Source: a virus. Taken from it: a DNA stretch of 22,530 nucleotides. Of the stretch, positions 9,007-22,530 are shown one piece after another. Within the stretch, counting starts at the first letter, position 1; every line of letters begins with the position of its first letter. Below the pieces are notes generated by a model. The model saw only the letters and a program-made list of their open reading frames with translations. It searched no databases and had not been told where the DNA came from. The stretch lies in the IMG/VR virus record IMGVR_UViG_3300020020_000162, positions 1 through 22,530 of that record. One strand, written 5' to 3'. The position numbers and the translations under genes were made by a program.

Positions 9007-9705
9007 TTATCCTTGGGGCTCCGCGAGTTTCGCTTCAATTCGATTGAGCGCTTCCTGCTGCGCGACTAGTGTCTTACCAACCCACGAAGCCCAAACGTGC
9101 AGAGGAACCTTTTCCGTACCTGCCTTGGTGGGGTCATCAATGTTGGTTGCGGTGTAGTTGGTGTCTTTCAACCAGTCATTCTGATCCGAATTCAACTCGT
9201 TATCCTCCTCAGGCAGTGGTACAGGTCCGGGCATCGGCATTCCCTTTTGGACCCACGCGCGTAGGTTATCCCCAGGACACGACGTACTCGCCCCGGCCAT
9301 GCCGCTGTGGTAACGCTTGGCTAGAGTTTTCCCCGCACGGCGATTACATTCGTCGTAAAGCTCGCGAATCGCGCGCTTGTGTGCGTCGGTAATTTGTGAA
9401 TCCTTACCGATAGCACAGACGCCCATGTTCGCCGTGTTGTGATTGGCAACGTGTACGCCAATCGCCAACCACGTCCCTTGGGCTCCCTCGTAAAGCTTGC
9501 CATGCTTATCTACGAGAAAGTTGTAGCCAATGTCTCGCCAGCCCCTGGTATCCATCTGATAGTTCTGAATGGATCGAACGGTCTGATCATCATCGGCGGC
9601 GGAGTAGTGGACGACGAATCCTGTTCGATTCGCCCATGACGTGGTGGGAAACGGGCGGGGATCGGGTTTTCGTGCTCCCCATTCGCTACGAGTAACAATA
9701 TCCAT
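9007..9705 (-). CDS. Endolysin: N-acetylmuramoyl-L-alanine amidase (Amidase_2/PGRP)
   Basis: The amidase domain spans about residues 3-155 counted from ATG 9711. The zinc ligands of the T7-lysozyme family are visible as H35 (FVVHYSA), H135 (KRYHSGM) and C145 (STSCPGD), with Tyr63 in GYNFLV. A Pro-rich linker (PMPGPVPLPEEDN) leads to a C-terminal segment of about 60 residues that may bind the cell wall. No signal peptide is present, so release needs a holin or another carrier. ATG 9705 is preferred because AGGGA lies eight bases upstream; it is only two bases from the ATG at 9711. It should cut the amide bond between MurNAc and the stem peptide of the host wall. Confidence 0.92.
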   Translation of the reverse strand: MDIVTRSEWGARKPDPRPFPTTSWANRTGFVVHYSAADDDQTVRSIQNYQMDTRGWRDIGYNFLVDKHGKLYEGAQGTWLAIGVHVANHNTANMGVCAIGKDSQITDAHKRAIRELYDECNRRAGKTLAKRYHSGMAGASTSCPGDNLRAWVQKGMPMPGPVPLPEEDNELNSDQNDWLKDTNYTATNIDDPTKAGTEKVPLHVWASWVGKTLVAQQEALNRIEAKLAEPQG

Positions 9706-10716: not shown

Positions 10717-11727
10717 TCACTTTAGGAGAAGAAGCTTGGTGCCCGGAACCAGCTTTCGGTTTACCGACGTAGATTGAATGAATATGTCGTACTCGGGATT
10801 CAAGTCGGGCTTCACGCGGTCATTATCTACCTGCGAGAGCCCTAGCAGATTACGTGCTTCTGGCCCGGTGTGGAAACGACCAGATTTACGATTGCGAATA
10901 GCAACCGTCTTTTGTGGTTGTACCGTCTCAGCTTTGGTGAGTTGGTAGAAAGCCTTACCCACAAGGTAATGGTGACCCTGTTCCTGGACCCACTCTCGAA
11001 TCGGATAAGCTTTATCAACTTTAAGTACGTCATAGGTATCCCTAGCCAAAGGACGGAGTCTAGCCGCTTTGACAGTATTCTTGTTTAGGGTGTCTATGCC
11101 TCCGGTTGAAAACAGCGAACGCGTACCGCGAATGCCCGAAGACCGGCCAACCATGAAGTTGTCAGTGGCTTGCCGAATGGTCTCGCCAACTTCAACAACA
11201 CCCTTAACCGTTTTAGCATCCCAGATGGCAATGTTGTCCACCGGAAAACCAAACTTCTTGGCTTCGAACTTTCCGATCTGATCGGGAACCAGAACTGCGA
11301 CAGTCCAGTTTTCCGCTTGCTTTTCAAGCAATTGGGCCAGCGCGCCTCCGGTCCACCTACGCGACTTATTCTCCGCGCCATCAGTGAGTACGTAAGTGAG
11401 GAAAGCGTGGTCCCCATAGAGCTGTGCCGTTTGGGACAAATCTTCCTGAGACTTCATGGTGGCGTCGATGAGTGCGGTCCAACCAAATGGGCGATAGTGC
11501 TGCGCAATTGACGGCAGACGAAGAACGTCTTTGTCATAGATAACGCATTTCACCTCGGAATTGAAGGTGTAGACCGAGACACGAGTTTCCTGATCAAGTT
11601 CCCTCGATCGTTGCGCAAGATAGGCGATTTGCGCGTCTGCTACCTTAACCAGTTGATTCTGTAGGTGACCCATAGAAGAGGAAGCGTCGAGAACAAGAGC
11701 AATGTGATTGATGTAGTTTTGAGTCAT
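10717..11727 (-). CDS. VWA-domain protein with intact MIDAS
   Basis: Residues about 8-190 form a von Willebrand factor A domain. The metal-ion-dependent adhesion site is complete: DASSSM (D14, S16, S18), T84 in FGWTALID and D116 in VLTDGAEN. The C-terminal 120 residues contain VREWV-like and RNRKSGRFHTGPEARNLLGL segments of unknown fold. ATG 11727 overlaps the previous stop and has GGGAG four bases upstream. It is one of three VWA proteins in the window, with 17434-18063 and Ro60. Its ligand is unknown; a shared metal-dependent protein-binding role is inference. Confidence 0.85.
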   Translation of the reverse strand: MTQNYINHIALVLDASSSMGHLQNQLVKVADAQIAYLAQRSRELDQETRVSVYTFNSEVKCVIYDKDVLRLPSIAQHYRPFGWTALIDATMKSQEDLSQTAQLYGDHAFLTYVLTDGAENKSRRWTGGALAQLLEKQAENWTVAVLVPDQIGKFEAKKFGFPVDNIAIWDAKTVKGVVEVGETIRQATDNFMVGRSSGIRGTRSLFSTGGIDTLNKNTVKAARLRPLARDTYDVLKVDKAYPIREWVQEQGHHYLVGKAFYQLTKAETVQPQKTVAIRNRKSGRFHTGPEARNLLGLSQVDNDRVKPDLNPEYDIFIQSTSVNRKLVPGTKLLLLK

Positions 11728-17134: not shown

Positions 17135-17434
17135 TTACTGGGAAACATCTTCCTCAGTGATTCCTTCGTCCTTGAGCATTTCAAGGCGTTCTTCTCGGGT
17201 CATGACTTCTACCCGATTGATGTAGATTCCATATATGAGAAGAGTTATGAAGTTTTGCACGGAGCTGATGCTGTTATTAATTGCTGAGTGGAGATTTGTA
17301 TGTACTGTGTAAAAGGTGATTTCGGTTAGATTCCGTCCGTTGTCCACGTACGTTTGACCGAAGTTTCGGGATAGCTCATTGGCTAGTTTTTCTTCCACTG
17401 CACTATTTAACCGAATTCGTACGAACCAGATCAT
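17135..17434 (-). CDS. 99-residue hypothetical protein
   Basis: ATG 17434 shares a base with the VWA stop (TAATG), so the pair is coupled. The product MIWFVRIRLNSAVEEKLANE... has a central hydrophobic stretch (FITLLIYGIYINRVEVM) that may touch membrane or be buried, and a C-terminal acidic helix (REERLEMLKDEGITEEDVSQ). No family recognised. As partner of a VWA protein it deserves joint testing. Confidence 0.7.
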   Translation of the reverse strand: MIWFVRIRLNSAVEEKLANELSRNFGQTYVDNGRNLTEITFYTVHTNLHSAINNSISSVQNFITLLIYGIYINRVEVMTREERLEMLKDEGITEEDVSQ

Positions 17435-18063
17435 TACTTCTCTTCCTCGTGCGTTTCGCCACCGGTGGCCTCAGCGATAGTAGAAGAGACCGTTTGCCCA
17501 GAAGCGCCACCCGCGAAGCTCTTGGTGGCTCGGGACATTCCCGAATACGATGAACGAGTAGACGCCCGACCATAAGAAACCGTGTTGGCCCGTTGGAAAC
17601 CCATCGATCCAGCCTGCGTCCAAACATCTGGACCAGCACCAAGGAAAACGAACGACCACTTCTTAGTGGCTTCCCGTTCCTCAATCATAGTAGAAATCTG
17701 CTCCAAGCGAAATTCGCTGGAGGAGTTTTCACGGCCGTCAGTCTGAACGATGACCAGAACCTTGTCGCCGTCCTTGAGCACATCTTTGGCCTCGAAATCT
17801 GTCACCGTCTTGCCCACTGCATCAAGCAGGGCAGTCATCCCACGAGGGCGATAGTTTTTGTTGTCCAACCGAGGCGTGGCTTCCCAGGTGGCAGCAGTAC
17901 AAAGCGAAATGAACTGGGTGTCGAATAGGGTAACGGTAAAGCTGTAATCGTCTGATGAACTCTCCAAATCTTGGAGGAATGAATTGAATCCACCACGGAC
18001 GTCTGGAGCAAGATCGTACATACTGCCGGACATGTCAACGATCATGAACACATGAGTAGTCAT
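17434..18063 (-). CDS. VWA-domain protein, compact, intact MIDAS
   Basis: A 209-residue single-domain von Willebrand A protein: DMSGSM (D10, S12, S14), GMTALLDAVG (T77) and VQTDGREN (D109), all MIDAS positions present. The C-terminal 50 residues are Ser/Thr/Gly-rich (SYGRASTRSSYSG, FAGGASGQTVSS) and probably disordered. It sits two genes downstream of Ro60, whose VWA domain has the same metal motif, separated only by the structured RNA region. TerY-like or Ro60-associated function is possible but unproven. Confidence 0.85.
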   Translation of the reverse strand: MTTHVFMIVDMSGSMYDLAPDVRGGFNSFLQDLESSSDDYSFTVTLFDTQFISLCTAATWEATPRLDNKNYRPRGMTALLDAVGKTVTDFEAKDVLKDGDKVLVIVQTDGRENSSSEFRLEQISTMIEEREATKKWSFVFLGAGPDVWTQAGSMGFQRANTVSYGRASTRSSYSGMSRATKSFAGGASGQTVSSTIAEATGGETHEEEK

Positions 18064-18302: not shown

Positions 18303-19988
18303 TCAGAATCCGCTCTTCGCGAATTCGGTAATCAGCTTGGGAACACTGGCGTCCATACCAACAATATCCAGCATTCCAGCATCCGATGGGTCGGCGATAG
18401 TGAACGGCGTCGCCGTCATGGCCATCACGACCAGCTTAGCATCGATGCCCATCGTCAGGCGATAGTTCTTGAGCGCGACGTGCGGGTGAATATCGCCAAA
18501 CCACGTTTCGTTATCAGTAATGATAGCAAAGGTGTCAACTTCGATCCTGTTATTCAACGCGTGCGTCATGGGGAGAGCACAGTTGGTTCGACCGAAGTTC
18601 TGGTCATGGGTCTTTTTGAGCACCTGGGTAAGGTTCATTCCGGGCGAGATTCCCAAATCCACCAGCACGTCTTGACGCCAGTTGTACGCACGACCGCCAC
18701 GAGTGGTGCCATCGCTGAAACCATAGACCTGGTAGTACGGCTCGGTCTTGGCCACCGCCATAGCCAAAGCTGCACCAGCTTGCGCACAGCTCATGTCCAA
18801 ACCGCTGACCGCTGCCTTCATCGAACCCGAAACATCCAGATTAATAGACAGCCTCTTGCCGGAGGGCTGCACGTGCTTGAACGCGAGATAGAACCCCACG
18901 TTCAACGCGTCAAGAATCTGAGGAACAGTGTCCCAATCCTTAATACGCGAAATGCCATCGACGCGCCGAAGACCTTGCGGCTCACGCATAAGTGTGCTCC
19001 GGGGACGCCAAATCTGGCCATGCTCGTGCACAATCAGCGCGTTCAGGTAATTGAACGGGTGCAGCCGAGTCTTCCGAATCATTTCCTCATCGGTCAACTT
19101 AGCAGCGTAATCCGCAGCAAAAACCATGTCGCGAAAAGCACCGATCCGAGACAAACGGGTAATGTTACGTACCAGTGCTTGGCCAGAAAGTTGCCCATTA
19201 TAGAAGAGCTTCTTCCAAACATCAGGCTCCTTGTGGAACTGAGTTGGAATGGCTTCCCACGGAAGGCTCGGGAATAAGTCCAGAACGTTGAGCAGATCCG
19301 GAATCGTCTTCGCTGCCTGAGCGTTCTTGAACCCTACGAGAATCGAAGGATTGTCGAACGTAACGTCCCTACCCAGGATGAAGTTTCCGACGTTCTGGTC
19401 TACCCCAGTGGGGTGTGCCAGCCGGAAAACGTCCCGGTGCGTCCACCCGTCCCGCTGACGGTACTTCACTGCCTGATAGGCAAGCTGCTCAGGAGTCTTA
19501 TTGGTGTACCAGTTTTGGACGGCAGTCTTCCGCGCACGACCCCATGCGCCACCCATCTTCTCAGCAAATCCGGTGCTGGTGAAAAGGTGAGTAGAAGTAC
19601 GCACAATGCTGTGGAAACGATTTCGTGCGGCCTTCTTCAGCTCATCGCTTCCGTACTGGAAAACCAGCTCTAGAGCGAAGATAGCAGCATCATTGCGCAG
19701 AGCCCGACCATCATAAGAAATATCAGCAGCTCGATCAACAACCAGACCGTTTTCATCGCGCTTGATCAGCTCGATAAGCCATTCCACGTTCTGCTTCGTC
19801 AGATCCTGTTCGCTGACGTAGTACGTTCCCCCATCCGTACCGAGAATGAGGAACCGCTCCAACCGAGTTCTGTCGTTGACTTCGAAGGTGAATCCACCAG
19901 CGTTGTTCTTGACCTGTCGAGGATCAGCCTGTTCCTTTTGCGTCTTTGGCTTGTTTGCGTCATCGAGATAGTTTTGTAGCGACGACAT
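18303..19988 (-). CDS. Ro60/Rsr orthologue: TROVE domain plus VWA domain
   Basis: The 561-residue protein has the full Ro60 layout. Residues about 25-370 are the TROVE HEAT-repeat ring: NDRTRLERFLILGTDGGTYYV near 38-58 and the RDGWTHRDVFRLAHP segment near 179-193, both close to conserved Ro60 sequence. Residues about 375-555 are a VWA domain with intact MIDAS DVSGSM (D385, S387, S389), T468 and D492. Ro60 rings bind Y RNAs outside and misfolded RNA ends in the hole, and tether exoribonucleases. Here Y-RNA-like genes lie upstream in the same direction. ATG 19988 has AAGGA seven bases upstream. The ribosome site follows a hairpin. Confidence 0.95.
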   Translation of the reverse strand: MSSLQNYLDDANKPKTQKEQADPRQVKNNAGGFTFEVNDRTRLERFLILGTDGGTYYVSEQDLTKQNVEWLIELIKRDENGLVVDRAADISYDGRALRNDAAIFALELVFQYGSDELKKAARNRFHSIVRTSTHLFTSTGFAEKMGGAWGRARKTAVQNWYTNKTPEQLAYQAVKYRQRDGWTHRDVFRLAHPTGVDQNVGNFILGRDVTFDNPSILVGFKNAQAAKTIPDLLNVLDLFPSLPWEAIPTQFHKEPDVWKKLFYNGQLSGQALVRNITRLSRIGAFRDMVFAADYAAKLTDEEMIRKTRLHPFNYLNALIVHEHGQIWRPRSTLMREPQGLRRVDGISRIKDWDTVPQILDALNVGFYLAFKHVQPSGKRLSINLDVSGSMKAAVSGLDMSCAQAGAALAMAVAKTEPYYQVYGFSDGTTRGGRAYNWRQDVLVDLGISPGMNLTQVLKKTHDQNFGRTNCALPMTHALNNRIEVDTFAIITDNETWFGDIHPHVALKNYRLTMGIDAKLVVMAMTATPFTIADPSDAGMLDIVGMDASVPKLITEFAKSGF

Positions 19989-20136: not shown

Positions 20137-20211
20137 GAGGATAACTCCCAACTTTTGGGAAGTGGGGCACCTGGACGAGCGGATGGGCGGACCTCTCACG
20201 ATCCCTCATCG

Positions 20212-20349
20212 CTAGACTGAACCAGGCCATCCATCGCTGAGGTCTTCTGCAACGCCACCACGTAGTGTACTGACGGTTTGCCAAGTTTCGGCCACGCTGC
20301 CTACTCGATCGATGTTGCCCCACTTCTTCTCTAGCCGACCCTCAATCAA
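20212..20349 (-). CDS. 45-residue small protein after tRNA-Arg(UCU), start uncertain
   Basis: The frame beginning at TTG 20349, nine bases past the tRNA, encodes LIEGRLEKKWGNIDRVGSVAETWQTVSTLRGG and ends SDGWPGSV. The amphipathic charged pattern looks protein-like, but no ribosome site precedes it and the frame is also open through the tRNA. It may be a real tRNA-linked small gene or a chance frame. Confidence 0.35.
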   Translation of the reverse strand: MIEGRLEKKWGNIDRVGSVAETWQTVSTLRGGVAEDLSDGWPGSV

Positions 20350-20357
20350 CCAGAGAG

Positions 20358-20427
20358 TGGGCCACCCAGGAATCGAACCTGGCATATCCAACTTAGAAGG
20401 CCGAATAGCGCATCCAGCGCGTAACCC
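20358..20427 (-). tRNA. tRNA-Arg(UCU), short D-arm
   Basis: Acceptor GGGTTAC/GTGGCCC pairs over 7 bp with two wobbles. The T-arm is canonical (CCAGG TTCGATT CCTGG). The anticodon loop is CTTCTAA (UCU), but the anticodon stem TCGGC/GTTGG has three wobbles. The D-arm is only GCGC-TGGAT-GCGC, so the gene is 70 bases long. Discriminator A. The unusual D-arm leaves it open whether the tRNA is charged normally. It begins six bases after the Y-RNA-like element 20434-20564. Confidence 0.7.
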
Positions 20428-20433
20428 GATTAA

Positions 20434-20564
20434 GATGCGAACATGTTTGTGAAGTCGGAAATTGCCTACACTTAAGGTGATGTCCTTCCCAACATCACCA
20501 AAAGTGCTTAGGGACTTGAACCCCAAGGCGCTGCCAAGATAACCAACTATCGCCGGCTCGCATC
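20434..20564 (-). ncRNA. Y-RNA-like element 2, T-arm but no D-arm
   Basis: Closing helix GATGCGA/TCGCATC (20558-20564 with 20434-20440). Internal loop GCCGG against ACAAACATGT, second helix AGTTGG/CCGACT (20543-20548 with 20453-20458), then TTATC. The interior has a GGC/GCC mini hairpin, a T-arm-like hairpin TTGGGG-TTCAAGT-CCCTAA, and a long acceptor-like hairpin GCACTT/AAGTGT extended by an 8 bp helix GGTGATGT/ACATCACC. There is no D-arm. 131 bases in total. The favoured reading is a Ro60-binding Y RNA with a partial tRNA-like module. Confidence 0.75.
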
Positions 20565-20579
20565 ATGTTTCTGATGGGT

Positions 20580-20695
20580 GTAGCGAACATGGTTGAAAGA
20601 ATCGGATGCCCTAACCAACTAGGCGATATCGCCAATTTTTGGCGGCGATAGGAGGAATTGAACCTTCGATAACCAACTCTAGTCCGGCTCGCTAC
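20580..20695 (-). ncRNA. Y-RNA-like element 1 with full circularly permuted tRNA-like module
   Basis: Closing helix GTAGCGA/TCGCTAC (20689-20695 with 20580-20586), loop GCCGG versus CATGT, second helix AGAGTTGG/CCGATTCT (20673-20680 with 20598-20605), then TTATC. The interior is a tRNA in permuted order: T-arm (GAAGG TTCAATT CCTCC), 3' acceptor strand TATCGCC, a ten-base linker, 5' acceptor strand GGCGATA, D-arm GCCT-AGTTGGTTA-GGGC, with the second helix in the place of the anticodon stem. This is the architecture of YrlA-type Y RNAs. A permuted tRNA gene that is circularised and cut is the alternative. Confidence 0.8.
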
Positions 20696-20704
20696 GTGTT
20701 TAGT

Positions 20705-20866
20705 TTACCTCATTGCGTTGAAGGTTTCTTTAATTGTGGCAATTGGGTGCATAATGAGGAATTTCAACCAGGCTAGGAATACAATTAACTGAGGCATTTT
20801 ACCCCAGTCAACTTCCTTTGCGTTGTAGTGGTGCTTGGCATATTCCCATCGTTCTTTGCTATTCAT
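20705..20866 (-). CDS. 53-residue probable membrane-associated protein
   Basis: ATG 20866 overlaps the preceding stop and has AGGA seven bases upstream. The product MNSKERWEYAKHHYNAKEVD is followed by WGKMPQLIVFLAWLKFLIMHPIATIKETFNAMR: a charged N-terminus and a hydrophobic helix at about residues 25-45. It ends nine bases before the first Y-RNA-like element. No family recognised. Confidence 0.65.
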   Translation of the reverse strand: MNSKERWEYAKHHYNAKEVDWGKMPQLIVFLAWLKFLIMHPIATIKETFNAMR

Positions 20867-21086
20867 GTCCTGATCCTTTTGTGTGGCGGTTTGGTACGTT
20901 GAAATCTGCTATGGATTCAAACTCGGTGTACCCTTCGAAAAGCATGCCACCAAATGCTGAGGTTGCTGGCTCTTCTGGACATCCGAGCGTGTTATAGAAT
21001 CCGTCCATTCGTTCTGCATTTACGTAGTCTTCTTTAGACACATCTTGGTAGTGTTGTTCGCCCTTTTTCTTCAGAAAGTATTTCAT
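20859..21086 (-). CDS. 75-residue hypothetical protein
   Basis: ATG 21086 has GGAG six bases upstream and gives MKYFLKKKGEQHYQDVSKED continuing to FEGYTEFESIADFNVPNRHTKGSGHE. The MKYFLKK... start and size match a common class of small phage proteins of unknown function. An earlier in-frame ATG at 21149 would add 21 residues but has a weaker site. It is coupled to the 53-residue gene. Confidence 0.7.
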   Translation of the reverse strand: MKYFLKKKGEQHYQDVSKEDYVNAERMDGFYNTLGCPEEPATSAFGGMLFEGYTEFESIADFNVPNRHTKGSGHE

Positions 21087-21280
21087 CCTGGTCTCCATGC
21101 GATTGATCACGTTTAAGGCCCGTCTTTTTGGTGACAGAGCGCGGGCCATTCTCTGTTCTTTAGCCCCTAACGCTCAACCCATTTAAACGGTCGCCACAAC
21201 CAAGGGAGCTATCAAGGATCACCTTTTCCCCCTCGCGGACCGGGGCGAGGAGTTTAGAGAGGAAAGCAGCTTTCCTCTAG
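21087..21280 (-). other. Gene-free spacer with two strong hairpins
   Basis: Between tRNA-Gly and the 75-residue gene I see no convincing frame. Two hairpins lie just past the tRNA on the minus strand: AGAGGAAAG/CTTTCCTCT (9 bp, 21258-21278) and CCTCGC/GCGAGG (6 bp, 21231-21250). Neither is followed by a U-run, so RNA processing or stability elements are more likely than terminators. The in-frame extension of the next gene (21087-21149) also lies here. Confidence 0.5.
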
Positions 21281-21352
21281 AGCGGGTAGGGAGGATCGAA
21301 CTCCCATAACCTGCTTGGAAGGCAGGCGCACTGGCCATTGTGCTATACCCGC
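21281..21352 (-). tRNA. tRNA-Gly(UCC)
   Basis: Canonical cloverleaf: acceptor GCGGGTA/TACCCGC, D-arm GCAC/GTGC, anticodon stem CCTGC/GCAGG with loop CTTCCAA (UCC), T-arm GGGAG TTCGATC CTCCC, discriminator U as usual for glycine. Its 5' end is two bases from the 245-base structured RNA, so RNase P cutting here would also create that RNA's 3' end. Confidence 0.95.
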
Positions 21353-21354
21353 GT

Positions 21355-21599
21355 GTACTAACTGGTATTCCTGCCATCTAGGGGGAACGCACCTCTTAGT
21401 CTGCTGTGTATCCTGCCATTGAAACACAGTTGTCTAATTTTGATCCCCGTGGTCTCGGATACCCGTGCGATTTTCATACTCCGATGGTCCGTAGCCTCTT
21501 TGAGACTAACTAGGATGTTTGAAAACCCGTCAAACGCCTTCAACCGTTAGTCCTAGCAGTATCTCCCCGCGTGCTACCTTTCGGAATACCAGTTAGTAC
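21355..21599 (-). ncRNA. 245-base structured RNA, 17 bp closing helix
   Basis: The ends pair perfectly over 17 bp (21583-21599 with 21355-21371). The interior forms several nested helices: GACTAAC/GTTAGTC enclosing GTTTGA/TCAAAC, TAGCA/TGCTA, GTCTC/GAGAC with CGGA/TCCG, and TTAG/CTAA enclosing CTGTGT/ACACAG. ATGGCAGGA occurs twice near the 3' end. The 5' helix is followed by GAAAGGTAGC, giving UUCCGAAAGG, which loosely recalls Ro-binding Y RNA ends. No convincing reading frame occupies the interval. The family is not recognised; it lies between a Y-RNA-like element and tRNA-Gly in the same direction. Confidence 0.75.
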
Positions 21600-21644
21600 T
21601 CCGCCCGACAATGGAGCCGAAACTTAACGTCGGGGGACTGGGTG

Positions 21645-21759
21645 TCCCTGAACATGTTGTGTCAATCGGGGTTGGCCTTGTCCATGTTTGGCCGCGTGGG
21701 ATTCGAACCCACAGTTTCTTTTTTGCAGAAAGATAACCGATCAACGTCCGGCTCAGGAA
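21645..21759 (-). ncRNA. Y-RNA-like element 3, T-arm module
   Basis: Closing helix TTCCTGA/TCAGGGA (21753-21759 with 21645-21651, one G-U). Loop GCCGG against CACAACATGT, second helix TTGATCGG/CCGATTGA (21737-21744 with 21662-21669), then TTATC. The interior has a TTTCT/AGAAA hairpin, a perfect T-arm (GTGGG TTCGAAT CCCAC), and a short acceptor-like GGCC/GGCC closed by 12 bases. No D-arm. A tRNA scanner may report its T-arm as a fragment. Confidence 0.75.
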
Positions 21760-21820
21760 TATATTCCTAGACCCTTTAGGCCCCAGGCCAGGTGACTACA
21801 GAATCTAGGAAACCTTGGAA

Positions 21821-21900
21821 GATACGAACATGTGTGATGACCCTCGGGTTTTTGGGTAGATTTGCAATCAGCGATAACCAAAGGTCTTCCGGCTCGTACC
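21821..21900 (-). ncRNA. Y-RNA-like element 4, minimal 80-base form
   Basis: Closing helix GGTACGA/TCGTATC (21894-21900 with 21821-21827, one G-U). Loop GCCGGAA against ATCACACATGT, a 9 bp second helix GACCTTTGG/CCGAGGGTC (21878-21886 with 21839-21847), then TTATC. The interior is only a small GATT-GCA-AATC hairpin and TACCCAAAAA, without T-arm, D-arm or acceptor. It keeps only the putative Ro-binding half, which argues that this half and not a tRNA is the conserved unit. Confidence 0.75.
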
Positions 21901-21904
21901 CAAA

Positions 21905-22069
21905 CTAAAGCGATTTCAAAAAGGTCTTCCACTGCTTGAACGAGAAAGTCAACACTGGGCCTTCAGGATCTTTACTGTCTCGAACTTCGACCAGGCTTTC
22001 TGTTATTCGCGCCTCAACGCAGTTGGTGTTCTGACTGCGCGTACTCTTGCGCCGGTGTCCATTCAACAC
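21905..22069 (-). CDS. DUF397-domain protein
   Basis: From GTG 22069 the 54-residue product reads VLNGHRRKSTRSQNTNCVEA, RITESLVEVRDSKDPEGPVL, then TFSFKQWKTFLKSL. The pattern KSxxS...NCVEA...VxVRDSKDPxGPVLxF...W..FL is the DUF397 signature, a family very abundant in Streptomyces, where members sit beside XRE-type regulators. No XRE gene is next to it here. The start lies one base after tRNA-Pro and lacks a strong ribosome site. Lateral gain from the host is likely. Confidence 0.85.
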   Translation of the reverse strand: MLNGHRRKSTRSQNTNCVEARITESLVEVRDSKDPEGPVLTFSFKQWKTFLKSL

Positions 22070-22070
22070 G

Positions 22071-22142
22071 TCGGGTACCCGCGAATCGAACGCGGTGTTT
22101 CTCGCTCCCAAAGCGAGTGGATTACCATCTTCCTCGTACCCG
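22071..22142 (-). tRNA. tRNA-Pro(UGG)
   Basis: Acceptor CGGGTAC/GTACCCG (7 bp), D-arm GGA/TCC with GATGGTAA loop, anticodon stem CTCGC/GCGAG with loop TTTGGGA (UGG), T-arm CCGCG TTCGATT CGCGG, discriminator A. No CCA encoded. The DUF397 gene follows after one base. Confidence 0.93.
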
Positions 22143-22149
22143 TGGATAT

Positions 22150-22218
22150 GGTGGCCAGGGTTCCAACCTGGTTACCGGCTAGCTCATCGCTACGGGACCA
22201 TTCTATCCCGCTGCCACC
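22150..22218 (-). other. Degenerate tRNA-like element
   Basis: Acceptor-like GGTGGC/GCCACC, a D-arm-like CGGGA/TCCCG hairpin with GG in its loop, and a T-arm-like CCAGG-TTGGAAC-CCTGG are present, but the T-loop lacks the conserved C56. No anticodon loop with U33 can be drawn (TAGC-GATGA-GCTA instead). It may be a decayed tRNA, possibly undetermined, or another tRNA mimic. It sits seven bases upstream of tRNA-Pro. Confidence 0.4.
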
Positions 22219-22227
22219 TAGTTTGGT

Positions 22228-22300
22228 GGGAGAACCATTCCCCAAGAACGGTTCTCCCGATTCCCTTAGATGCCCGCTCGGACAGACAATTCCTCGGGAG
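22228..22300 (-). other. Mutually exclusive hairpins between tRNA-like genes
   Basis: Bases 22228-22236 pair with 22250-22258 (GGGAGAACC type, extended to 13 bp by GTTC/GAAT). Bases 22254-22260 can instead pair with 22294-22300 (CTCCCGA/TCGGGAG). The CTCCC at 22254-22258 is shared, so the structures exclude each other. No U-run follows, so a switch or processing role is only a guess. Confidence 0.4.
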
Positions 22301-22306
22301 TTTGGT

Positions 22307-22451
22307 GCTTCCGAACATGGGGTGTAAATCGAAAAGGGTTTCCCCGACCGCTGCTCTGCCGCTGAGCTACCCGCAGTCAATGAAGACACGGGAGGGGATT
22401 TGAACCCATGACACACGGTTTCAGATAATCGATCTACTTCGGCTCGGAAGC
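22307..22451 (-). ncRNA. Y-RNA-like element 5 with permuted tRNA-like module
   Basis: Closing helix GCTTCCGA/TCGGAAGC (8 bp, 22444-22451 with 22307-22314). Loop GCCGAAG against ACACCCCATGT; here GCCGAAG fits the bacterial Y-RNA consensus I recall (GNCGAAN0-1G). Second helix GTAGATCGA/TCGATTTAC (9 bp, 22429-22437 with 22324-22332), then TTATC. The interior has a T-arm (TTCAAAT loop), 3' acceptor-like CCCGTGT, a linker, then CTGCGGG with TA and a D-arm GCTC-AGCGGCA-GAGC: permuted tRNA order again. Here TCGA replaces CCGA with a matching change on the other strand, a compensatory pair. Confidence 0.78.
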
Positions 22452-22458
22452 TCAAAGG

Positions 22459-22530
22459 TGGCGGGGAAGGGAATCGAACCCTCAATCGCTCGGGTTATGA
22501 GCCCGGCCAGTTACCGTTACATGCACCCCA
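22459..22530 (-). tRNA. tRNA-Met(CAU), 5' end cut by window edge
   Basis: Anticodon loop CTCATAA (CAU), T-arm GAGGG TTCGATT CCCTT, 3' acceptor CCCCGCC with discriminator A. The 5' acceptor visible is TGGGG, so the first two bases (expected GG) lie beyond base 22530. The D-stem is weak in this reading. Elongator versus initiator type, or a modified CAU reading Ile, cannot be decided. Confidence 0.8.

What the first reader, a model, noticed from the sequence alone, without database searches (positions are those of the whole stretch)
20434..22451. Five Y-RNA-like genes of one family interleaved with tRNAs near a phage Ro60
Seen: five minus-strand units share closing helix a - GCCG(G/A) - helix b - TTATC - variable interior - helix b' - CATGT - helix a'. 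Helices a (7-8 bp) and b (6-9 bp) have different sequences in every unit yet pair in all five, including compensatory changes (CCGA with TTGG/TCGG, but TCGA with TCGA in unit 5). Known: Ro60 orthologues are often encoded near Y RNAs, some with tRNA-like domains. Inferred: this is a multi-copy Y RNA array serving the encoded Ro60, organised like, and probably co-processed with, a tRNA operon. The number and interleaving look unusual.
Basis: partly seen in the sequence, partly recalled or inferred. Interest (0 to 1): 0.95.

Follow-up and report, generated by a model that had tools for sequence, protein, structure and literature searches.

The report
Phage Y-RNA array beside Ro60 gene
The phage carries five small-RNA genes that are almost certainly Y RNAs, the docking partners of the Ro60 protein it also encodes; this is a real and well-supported array, but the same kind of array, with up to nine copies wedged between tRNAs, turns out to be common in actinobacterial phages.

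Summary
Five minus-strand units (20434-22451) share helix a / CGR / helix b / TTATC / head / b' / A(T,C) / a' upstream of a true Ro60 gene (TROVE + vWA_Ro60). The same descriptor finds 78 sense but 0 antisense units in 80 cellular Ro60 loci, and 89 versus 4 in 80 viral ones. In 67 non-redundant stems all 16 pairs covary. A blind motif scan of viral contigs landed on Ro60-encoding contigs in 28 of 33 cases. Some interiors are circularly permuted tRNAs: unit 2 is called as a tRNA after rotation, and unit 5 is a sub-threshold full-length Rfam YrlA match. The units are therefore bacterial/phage Y RNAs, a known class. What is not supported is 'unusual': Rhodococcus phage Trina has nine, another phage six, and 190 mycobacteriophage records carry Alice's three-unit region. 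Additions: Y genes abut tRNAs with sharply fixed gaps (mode 2 nt before, 4 nt after), implying release by tRNA-processing enzymes, and the CGR-N10-UUAUC spacing also occurs in human Y1 and Y4. Ro60 binding, expression and function were not tested.

The parts
22307..22451 (-). Y RNA unit 5 (145 nt): helix a, CGA, helix b, TTATC, YrlA-type permuted tRNA head (T arm, acceptor, D arm), b', AT, a'
   Evidence: full-length Rfam YrlA match 37.6 bits, E 4.7e-6 (below gathering score 69); permuted tRNA only at relaxed ARAGORN setting; fold z -3.3
21820..21901 (-). Y RNA unit 4 (82 nt): bare stem with no tRNA-like head
21645..21759 (-). Y RNA unit 3 (115 nt): T arm and a short hairpin in the head, no D arm
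   Evidence: weak Rfam tRNA match over its T arm, 26.0 bits
20580..20695 (-). Y RNA unit 2 (116 nt): head is a circularly permuted tRNA (T arm, 7-bp acceptor TATCGCC/GGCGATA, D arm)
   Evidence: ARAGORN calls a tRNA after rotation at default settings
20434..20564 (-). Y RNA unit 1 (131 nt): T arm and acceptor-like stem extended by a long hairpin, no D arm
   Evidence: fold z -4.1
18303..19988 (-). Ro60 orthologue, 561 aa, conserved MIDAS motif DxSGS and the positions aligned with Xenopus K170 and H187
   Evidence: Pfam; PHROG 850; PDB 2nvo 9.2e-89, 1yvp 3.4e-80; alignment
22459..22530 (-). tRNA cut by the window end, 7 nt upstream of unit 5
   Evidence: Rfam RF00005 31 bits
22070..22142 (-). 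tRNA-Pro(tgg) between units 5 and 4
21280..21352 (-). tRNA-Gly(tcc) between units 3 and 2
20359..20427 (-). weak tRNA-like stretch starting 6 nt after unit 1
   Evidence: RF01852 19.1 bits, E 1.8 (weak)

Best explanation
The five units are Y RNAs of the phage-encoded Ro60. Shown computationally: each closes on itself through a Ro60-locus-specific double stem (helix a, a CGR/A(T,C) internal loop, helix b, then UUAUC), and the stem covaries across hundreds of relatives beside Ro60 in bacteria and phages. Above the stem sit different heads: a circularly permuted tRNA lacking an anticodon loop (units 2 and 5), partial tRNA pieces (1 and 3), or almost nothing (4). Inferred: the genes are co-transcribed with the tRNAs and cut out by the tRNA-processing enzymes; Ro60 docks on the shared stem; bare Y RNAs act as gates on the Ro60 ring, while tRNA-like heads act as adaptors that bring Ro60 to tRNA-handling enzymes or to host PNPase (as in the RYPER particle), for decay or quality control of structured RNA during infection.
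For: Descriptor hits sense/antisense: 78/0 in 80 cellular and 89/4 in 80 viral Ro60 loci. 267 units, CGR-to-TTA spacing 10 (151) or 11 (81). The 5' motif without structure: 195 of 428 sense occurrences have the 3' partner against 2 of 126 antisense; a substituted random downstream stretch gives 13. 67 non-redundant stems: 94.1% of cells paired against 31-44% when slid, all 16 pairs with double changes, covariation 0.890 against 0.283 shuffled, 0/500 shuffles. Blind 16-specified-base motif scans: 33 contigs tested, 28 with TROVE. Permuted interiors called as tRNA 44/267 against 3 unpermuted and 0 shuffled. tRNA gaps 0-3 nt upstream (31 cases, none at 4-15) and mostly 2-7 nt downstream. Ro60 identity. 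Secondary literature on YrlA anatomy and RYPER (PMC8394870).
Against: No expression or binding data. No unit reaches the Rfam YrlA gathering score. Annadreamy retains three Y units without a TROVE match, and NoodleTree retains three with a truncated Ro60, so Ro60 in cis is not strictly required. In the window itself only two units lie next to a tRNA or tRNA-like stretch. The function (gate, tether, decay) is carried over from other bacteria and untested in phages.
Confidence: 0.87

Rival explanations
1. The tRNA-like Y RNAs act mainly as decoys for host tRNA-cutting nucleases or tRNA-modifying enzymes. They display the tRNA body but have no anticodon loop to cut, and Ro60 merely stabilises them.
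For: The permuted heads have no anticodon loop, because the Ro60 stem takes the anticodon-stem position. The units sit among large phage tRNA arrays. Hughes et al. 2020 suggest YrlA could competitively inhibit an anticodon nuclease (PMC7790460).
Against: Many units have no tRNA-like head, e.g. unit 4, Alice 75 and 82 nt, Trina 62 nt, yet keep the full Ro60 stem and UUAYC. Decoy activity alone would not explain the strict Ro60 association.
Confidence: 0.2
2. They are permuted tRNA genes that are rearranged into working, translating tRNAs.
For: Unit 2 has a perfect 7-bp acceptor, D and T arms, and GCCA after the 3' acceptor strand (sequence).
Against: No anticodon is present; the anticodon stem continues into helix a; the shared stem also occurs in units with no tRNA features; strong association with Ro60.
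Confidence: 0.03
3. They are decayed tRNA copies or hairpin terminators in an untidy tRNA cluster.
For: Partial tRNA arms and weak tRNA matches.
Against: Compensatory change at every stem pair, fixed 10-11 nt spacing, strand bias 78 to 0, conservation across bacteria and phages.
Confidence: 0.01

Closest known systems
Bacterial Y RNAs of the YrlA type (Rfam RF02553; Salmonella, mycobacteria; Chen et al. 2014, Wang et al. 2018, as cited in PMC8394870)
   Same: Near Ro60, end-to-end closing stem, permuted tRNA head with D, T and acceptor arms; unit 5 matches the whole model (37.6 bits).
   Different: Below the gathering score. The shared motif here is CGR-N10/11-TTATC with A(T,C). Several units lack part or all of the tRNA head. 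Five copies lie among tRNAs.
Y RNAs of other actinophages (Alice, Sixama, GMA2, Big4, Patelgo, Gilson, TunaTartare, Trina)
   Same: Same stem motif, same covariation, in Ro60 loci, often between tRNAs.
   Different: Two to nine units; gaps to tRNAs are often tighter than in the window.
Vertebrate Y RNAs and nematode stem-bulge RNAs
   Same: Lower stem, loop or bulge, upper stem, then UUAUC at the start of the loop (PMC4450293); human Y1 and Y4 have CGA-N10-UUAUC exactly (PMC3928194, PMC5839159).
   Different: Animal lower stem has a single bulged C; no tRNA-like head; the Rfam Y_RNA model did not match; homology is not shown.

Membership tests
Bacterial/phage Y RNA (functional class) | Encoded close to a Ro60 gene | tested here: met
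   Unit 1 ends about 450 b from Ro60; across loci 177 of 267 units lie within 1 kb upstream of Ro60
Bacterial/phage Y RNA (functional class) | 5' and 3' ends pair in a conserved Ro60-type stem | tested here: met
   covariation; strand control
Bacterial/phage Y RNA (functional class) | At least one member has a tRNA-like domain | tested here: met
   unit 2 permuted tRNA, unit 5 YrlA match
Bacterial/phage Y RNA (functional class) | Bound by Ro60 in cells | not testable with these tools
   needs pull-down
Bacterial/phage Y RNA (functional class) | Expressed as a stable small RNA | not testable with these tools
   needs RNA sequencing or Northern blot
Rfam YrlA RF02553 | Reaches the curated gathering score of 69 bits | tested here: not met
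   37.6 bits best in window; 0 of 18 records over cut-off
Vertebrate Y RNA RF00019 | Match to the Rfam model | tested here: not met
   no match up to E 5
Ro60/TROVE protein | TROVE ring plus vWA domain with MIDAS | tested here: met

The most novel reading that the evidence does not exclude
The helix a / CGR / N10 / UUAUC element is one Ro60-docking module shared by phage, bacterial and animal Y RNAs, and actinophages use it as a tRNA-punctuated kit: many Y RNAs with the same dock and different heads, released from tRNA transcripts by tRNA-processing enzymes, each routing Ro60 to a different target.
Probability: 0.35. Interest if true: 0.8.

Novelty: new member of a known kind. Interest (0 to 1): 0.55.

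Why it matters
Phage Y RNAs have been known to exist, but what a phage needs several of them for is open. The descriptor and covariation found here give a working consensus that finds Y RNAs across the phage and actinobacterial Ro60 loci examined, where Rfam's YrlA model stays below threshold, and point to laboratory phages (Trina with nine, Alice with three) in which function and tRNA-dependent processing can be tested. The shared CGR-N10-UUAUC spacing makes the disputed relation between bacterial and animal Y RNAs testable.

Tried and rejected
A strict descriptor on the first relatives found nothing in Streptomyces BE phages or Gordonia phage Sixama because the inner pairs covary (GC/GT, GC/GC, GT/AT); this was fixed by treating them as pairs. 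A relaxed descriptor has a null of 0.8 per window, so single relaxed hits such as window + 9379-9458 and - 10444-10308 are taken as chance. Weak Rfam YrlA hits that span two neighbouring tRNAs (e.g. Gilson 74650-74739) are artefacts and were not counted. A covariance model of the whole units was not built because the interiors differ too much to align. Rfam matches to mir-499 and nematode ceN72-3 are far below their thresholds and taken as a lead at most. DNA-level search found no near relative of the array. Permuted functional tRNAs, pseudogenes and terminators were considered and rejected.

Full report
OBSERVATION. The five units were re-read on the minus strand and recovered by a script that requires helix a, GCCG, helix b, TTATC, CATGT and a'. 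Exact ends are 22451-22307 (U5, 145 nt), 21901-21820 (U4, 82), 21759-21645 (U3, 115), 20695-20580 (U2, 116) and 20564-20434 (U1, 131). The variable outer seven positions of helix a pair 7/7 within each unit and mostly 3-6/7 between units. A first-pass descriptor had one hit in 8.2 Mb of first-order resampled strand. Minimum-energy folds of four of the five units have z between -2.2 and -4.1; the short U4 is -1.8.

RO60. The gene at 18303-19988 (-) has TROVE and the Ro60 vWA domain, is PHROG 850 'RNA-binding protein', and matches D. radiodurans Rsr 2nvo (9.2e-89) and Xenopus Ro60 1yvp (3.4e-80) over nearly its full length. The MIDAS motif DVSGSM is conserved, and the residues aligned with Xenopus K170 and H187 are K175 and H192, K175 being invariant among 12 relatives (that these two contact Y RNA is from my own knowledge). 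Ro60 is common in actinophages: 340 phage records match.

WHAT THE UNITS ARE. Relatives were collected by protein similarity: 80 cellular Ro60 loci, 80 viral and named phages. The descriptor gave 78 sense, 0 antisense and 2 shuffled hits in cellular loci, and 89, 4 and 4 in viral loci. A slightly wider set holds 267 distinct units, with CGR-to-TTA spacing 10 or 11 in 232 of them, although 7-14 was allowed. The two inner pairs of helix a covary: GC/GC 99, GT/AT 70, GC/GT 47, AC/GT 20. Hits were found in Actinobacteria, one cyanobacterial MAG and one Armatimonadetes, with none or only doubtful ones in Poribacteria, Chloroflexi and Myxococcales, so the consensus is not universal.

COVARIATION. 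From 150 stems, 104 below 85% identity were kept and 67 of these were aligned without gaps. All 16 pairs have changes on both sides; 94.1% of cells pair, against 31-44% in slid registers; 340 cells have double changes against 108 in shuffles; no shuffle of 500 reaches the observed covariation score. The stems had been selected for pairing, so the percentage paired is biased upward, but the variety of pair types is not produced by that selection. A test without selection on structure: of 428 sense occurrences of CGR-N10/11-TTAYC, 195 have the 3' partner, against 2 of 126 antisense and 13 with a substituted downstream stretch.

ASSOCIATION WITH RO60, BLIND TEST. Two DNA motifs of 16 specified bases, searched without using any protein, were scanned over 2.9 million viral contigs. 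Of 33 contigs tested, 28 encode TROVE; six of the 33 had already been met through Ro60. Of the five without, three are fragments of 4-29 kb, one (68 kb) has no convincing partner and looks like chance, and one is Streptomyces phage Annadreamy, which keeps three Y units and whose relatives Faust, Sham and TunaTartare have Ro60. NoodleTree likewise keeps three units beside a truncated Ro60. Both look like recent Ro60 losses.

HEADS. Rfam YrlA matches U5 over its full length at 37.6 bits (E 4.7e-6) but below the gathering score of 69; no match in 18 Ro60-bearing records passes it. The YrlA layout is a circularly permuted tRNA: T arm first, acceptor closed by a loop, then D arm, with the anticodon stem continuing into the Y stem. 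To test this, interiors were rotated and joined through an artificial anticodon loop: ARAGORN called 44 of 267 rotated, 3 unrotated and 0 rotated-shuffled; at relaxed stringency 94, 4 and 6. U2 is called at default settings, U5 only at the relaxed setting. U3 and U1 keep a T arm and acceptor-like parts, U4 none. Bare stems retain UUAYC too (after allowing for about 61 expected false hits, few units lack it), so UUAYC is not merely the tRNA variable loop.

NUMBER AND INTERLEAVING. Five is not exceptional. Rhodococcus phage Trina (L182) has nine within about 4 kb upstream of Ro60, L180 six, Sixama about five, Big4 about five, Alice three; Alice's region is present in 190 records. In phages, the gap from a tRNA 3' end to the next Y helix is 0-3 nt in 31 cases with mode 2 and none at 4-15; the gap from a Y helix to the next tRNA has mode 4 and is mostly 2-7. 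Such fixed spacing is what one expects if RNase P and the tRNA 3'-end enzymes release the Y RNAs; this is inference. Existing annotation calls some of these stretches tRNA-OTHER, tRNA-Tyr or hypothetical proteins.

MECHANISM. Reviews describe the basal stem of YrlA as the Ro60 tether and the tRNA-like domain as the part that contacts PNPase, forming RYPER, which degrades structured RNA (PMC8394870). Hughes et al. suggest YrlA may instead inhibit an anticodon nuclease (PMC7790460). A phage with tRNAs, Ro60 and several Y RNAs could use either. I favour a Ro60 RNP with several adaptors acting in RNA decay or quality control (inferred), with a decoy role as the main rival.

KNOWN OR NEW. Phage Y RNAs have been reported (Sim and Wolin 2018 as cited in PMC7765460; from memory, Chen et al. 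2014 report likely Y RNAs near Ro60 in more than 250 bacterial and phage species; that paper was not held). The array is thus a new member of a known kind. Not found in the papers I could search: tRNA-punctuated arrays of up to nine units, and the CGR-N10-UUAUC spacing shared with human Y1 and Y4 (sequences quoted in PMC3928194 and PMC5839159). Nematode stem-bulge RNAs also carry UUAUC directly after the upper stem (PMC4450293). A review states that bacterial Y RNAs are not homologous to vertebrate ones (PMC4726728); the shared element is a lead against that, not proof.

Noticed in passing
window 21355-21601 (-): A strongly structured stretch of about 250 nt between unit 3 and tRNA-Gly, closed by a perfect 17-bp helix (GUACUAACUGGUAUUCC / GGAAUACCAGUUAGUAC), fold z -3.3. 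No meaningful Rfam match and no DNA relative among phages. Possibly an unknown structured RNA.
   Followed up: partly
window 17434-18063 and 10717-11727 (-): Two further proteins with vWA-like MIDAS starts (DMSGSM, DASSSM), both matching PHROG 7371 and 26613 of unknown function, one just downstream of Ro60. No Pfam match.
   Followed up: partly
Streptomyces phage Annadreamy (L232) and Mycobacterium phage NoodleTree (L064): Both keep three Y RNA units although Ro60 is absent or truncated; natural deletion cases useful for testing.
   Followed up: partly
L024 8452-8508 (Gordonia phage GMA2): Pistol self-cleaving ribozyme, 56.8 bits, above its cut-off, inside the tRNA / Y RNA cluster.
   Followed up: no
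L003 13944-14365 and L024 7731-8142: tmRNA genes (Rfam RF00023) right beside the Ro60 / Y RNA / tRNA clusters of Sixama and GMA2, absent from the annotation tables shown.
   Followed up: no
window 20155-20330 (-): Another intergenic stretch framed by GTGGGGCA / TGCCCCAC between the array and Ro60, possibly structured; not identified.
   Followed up: no
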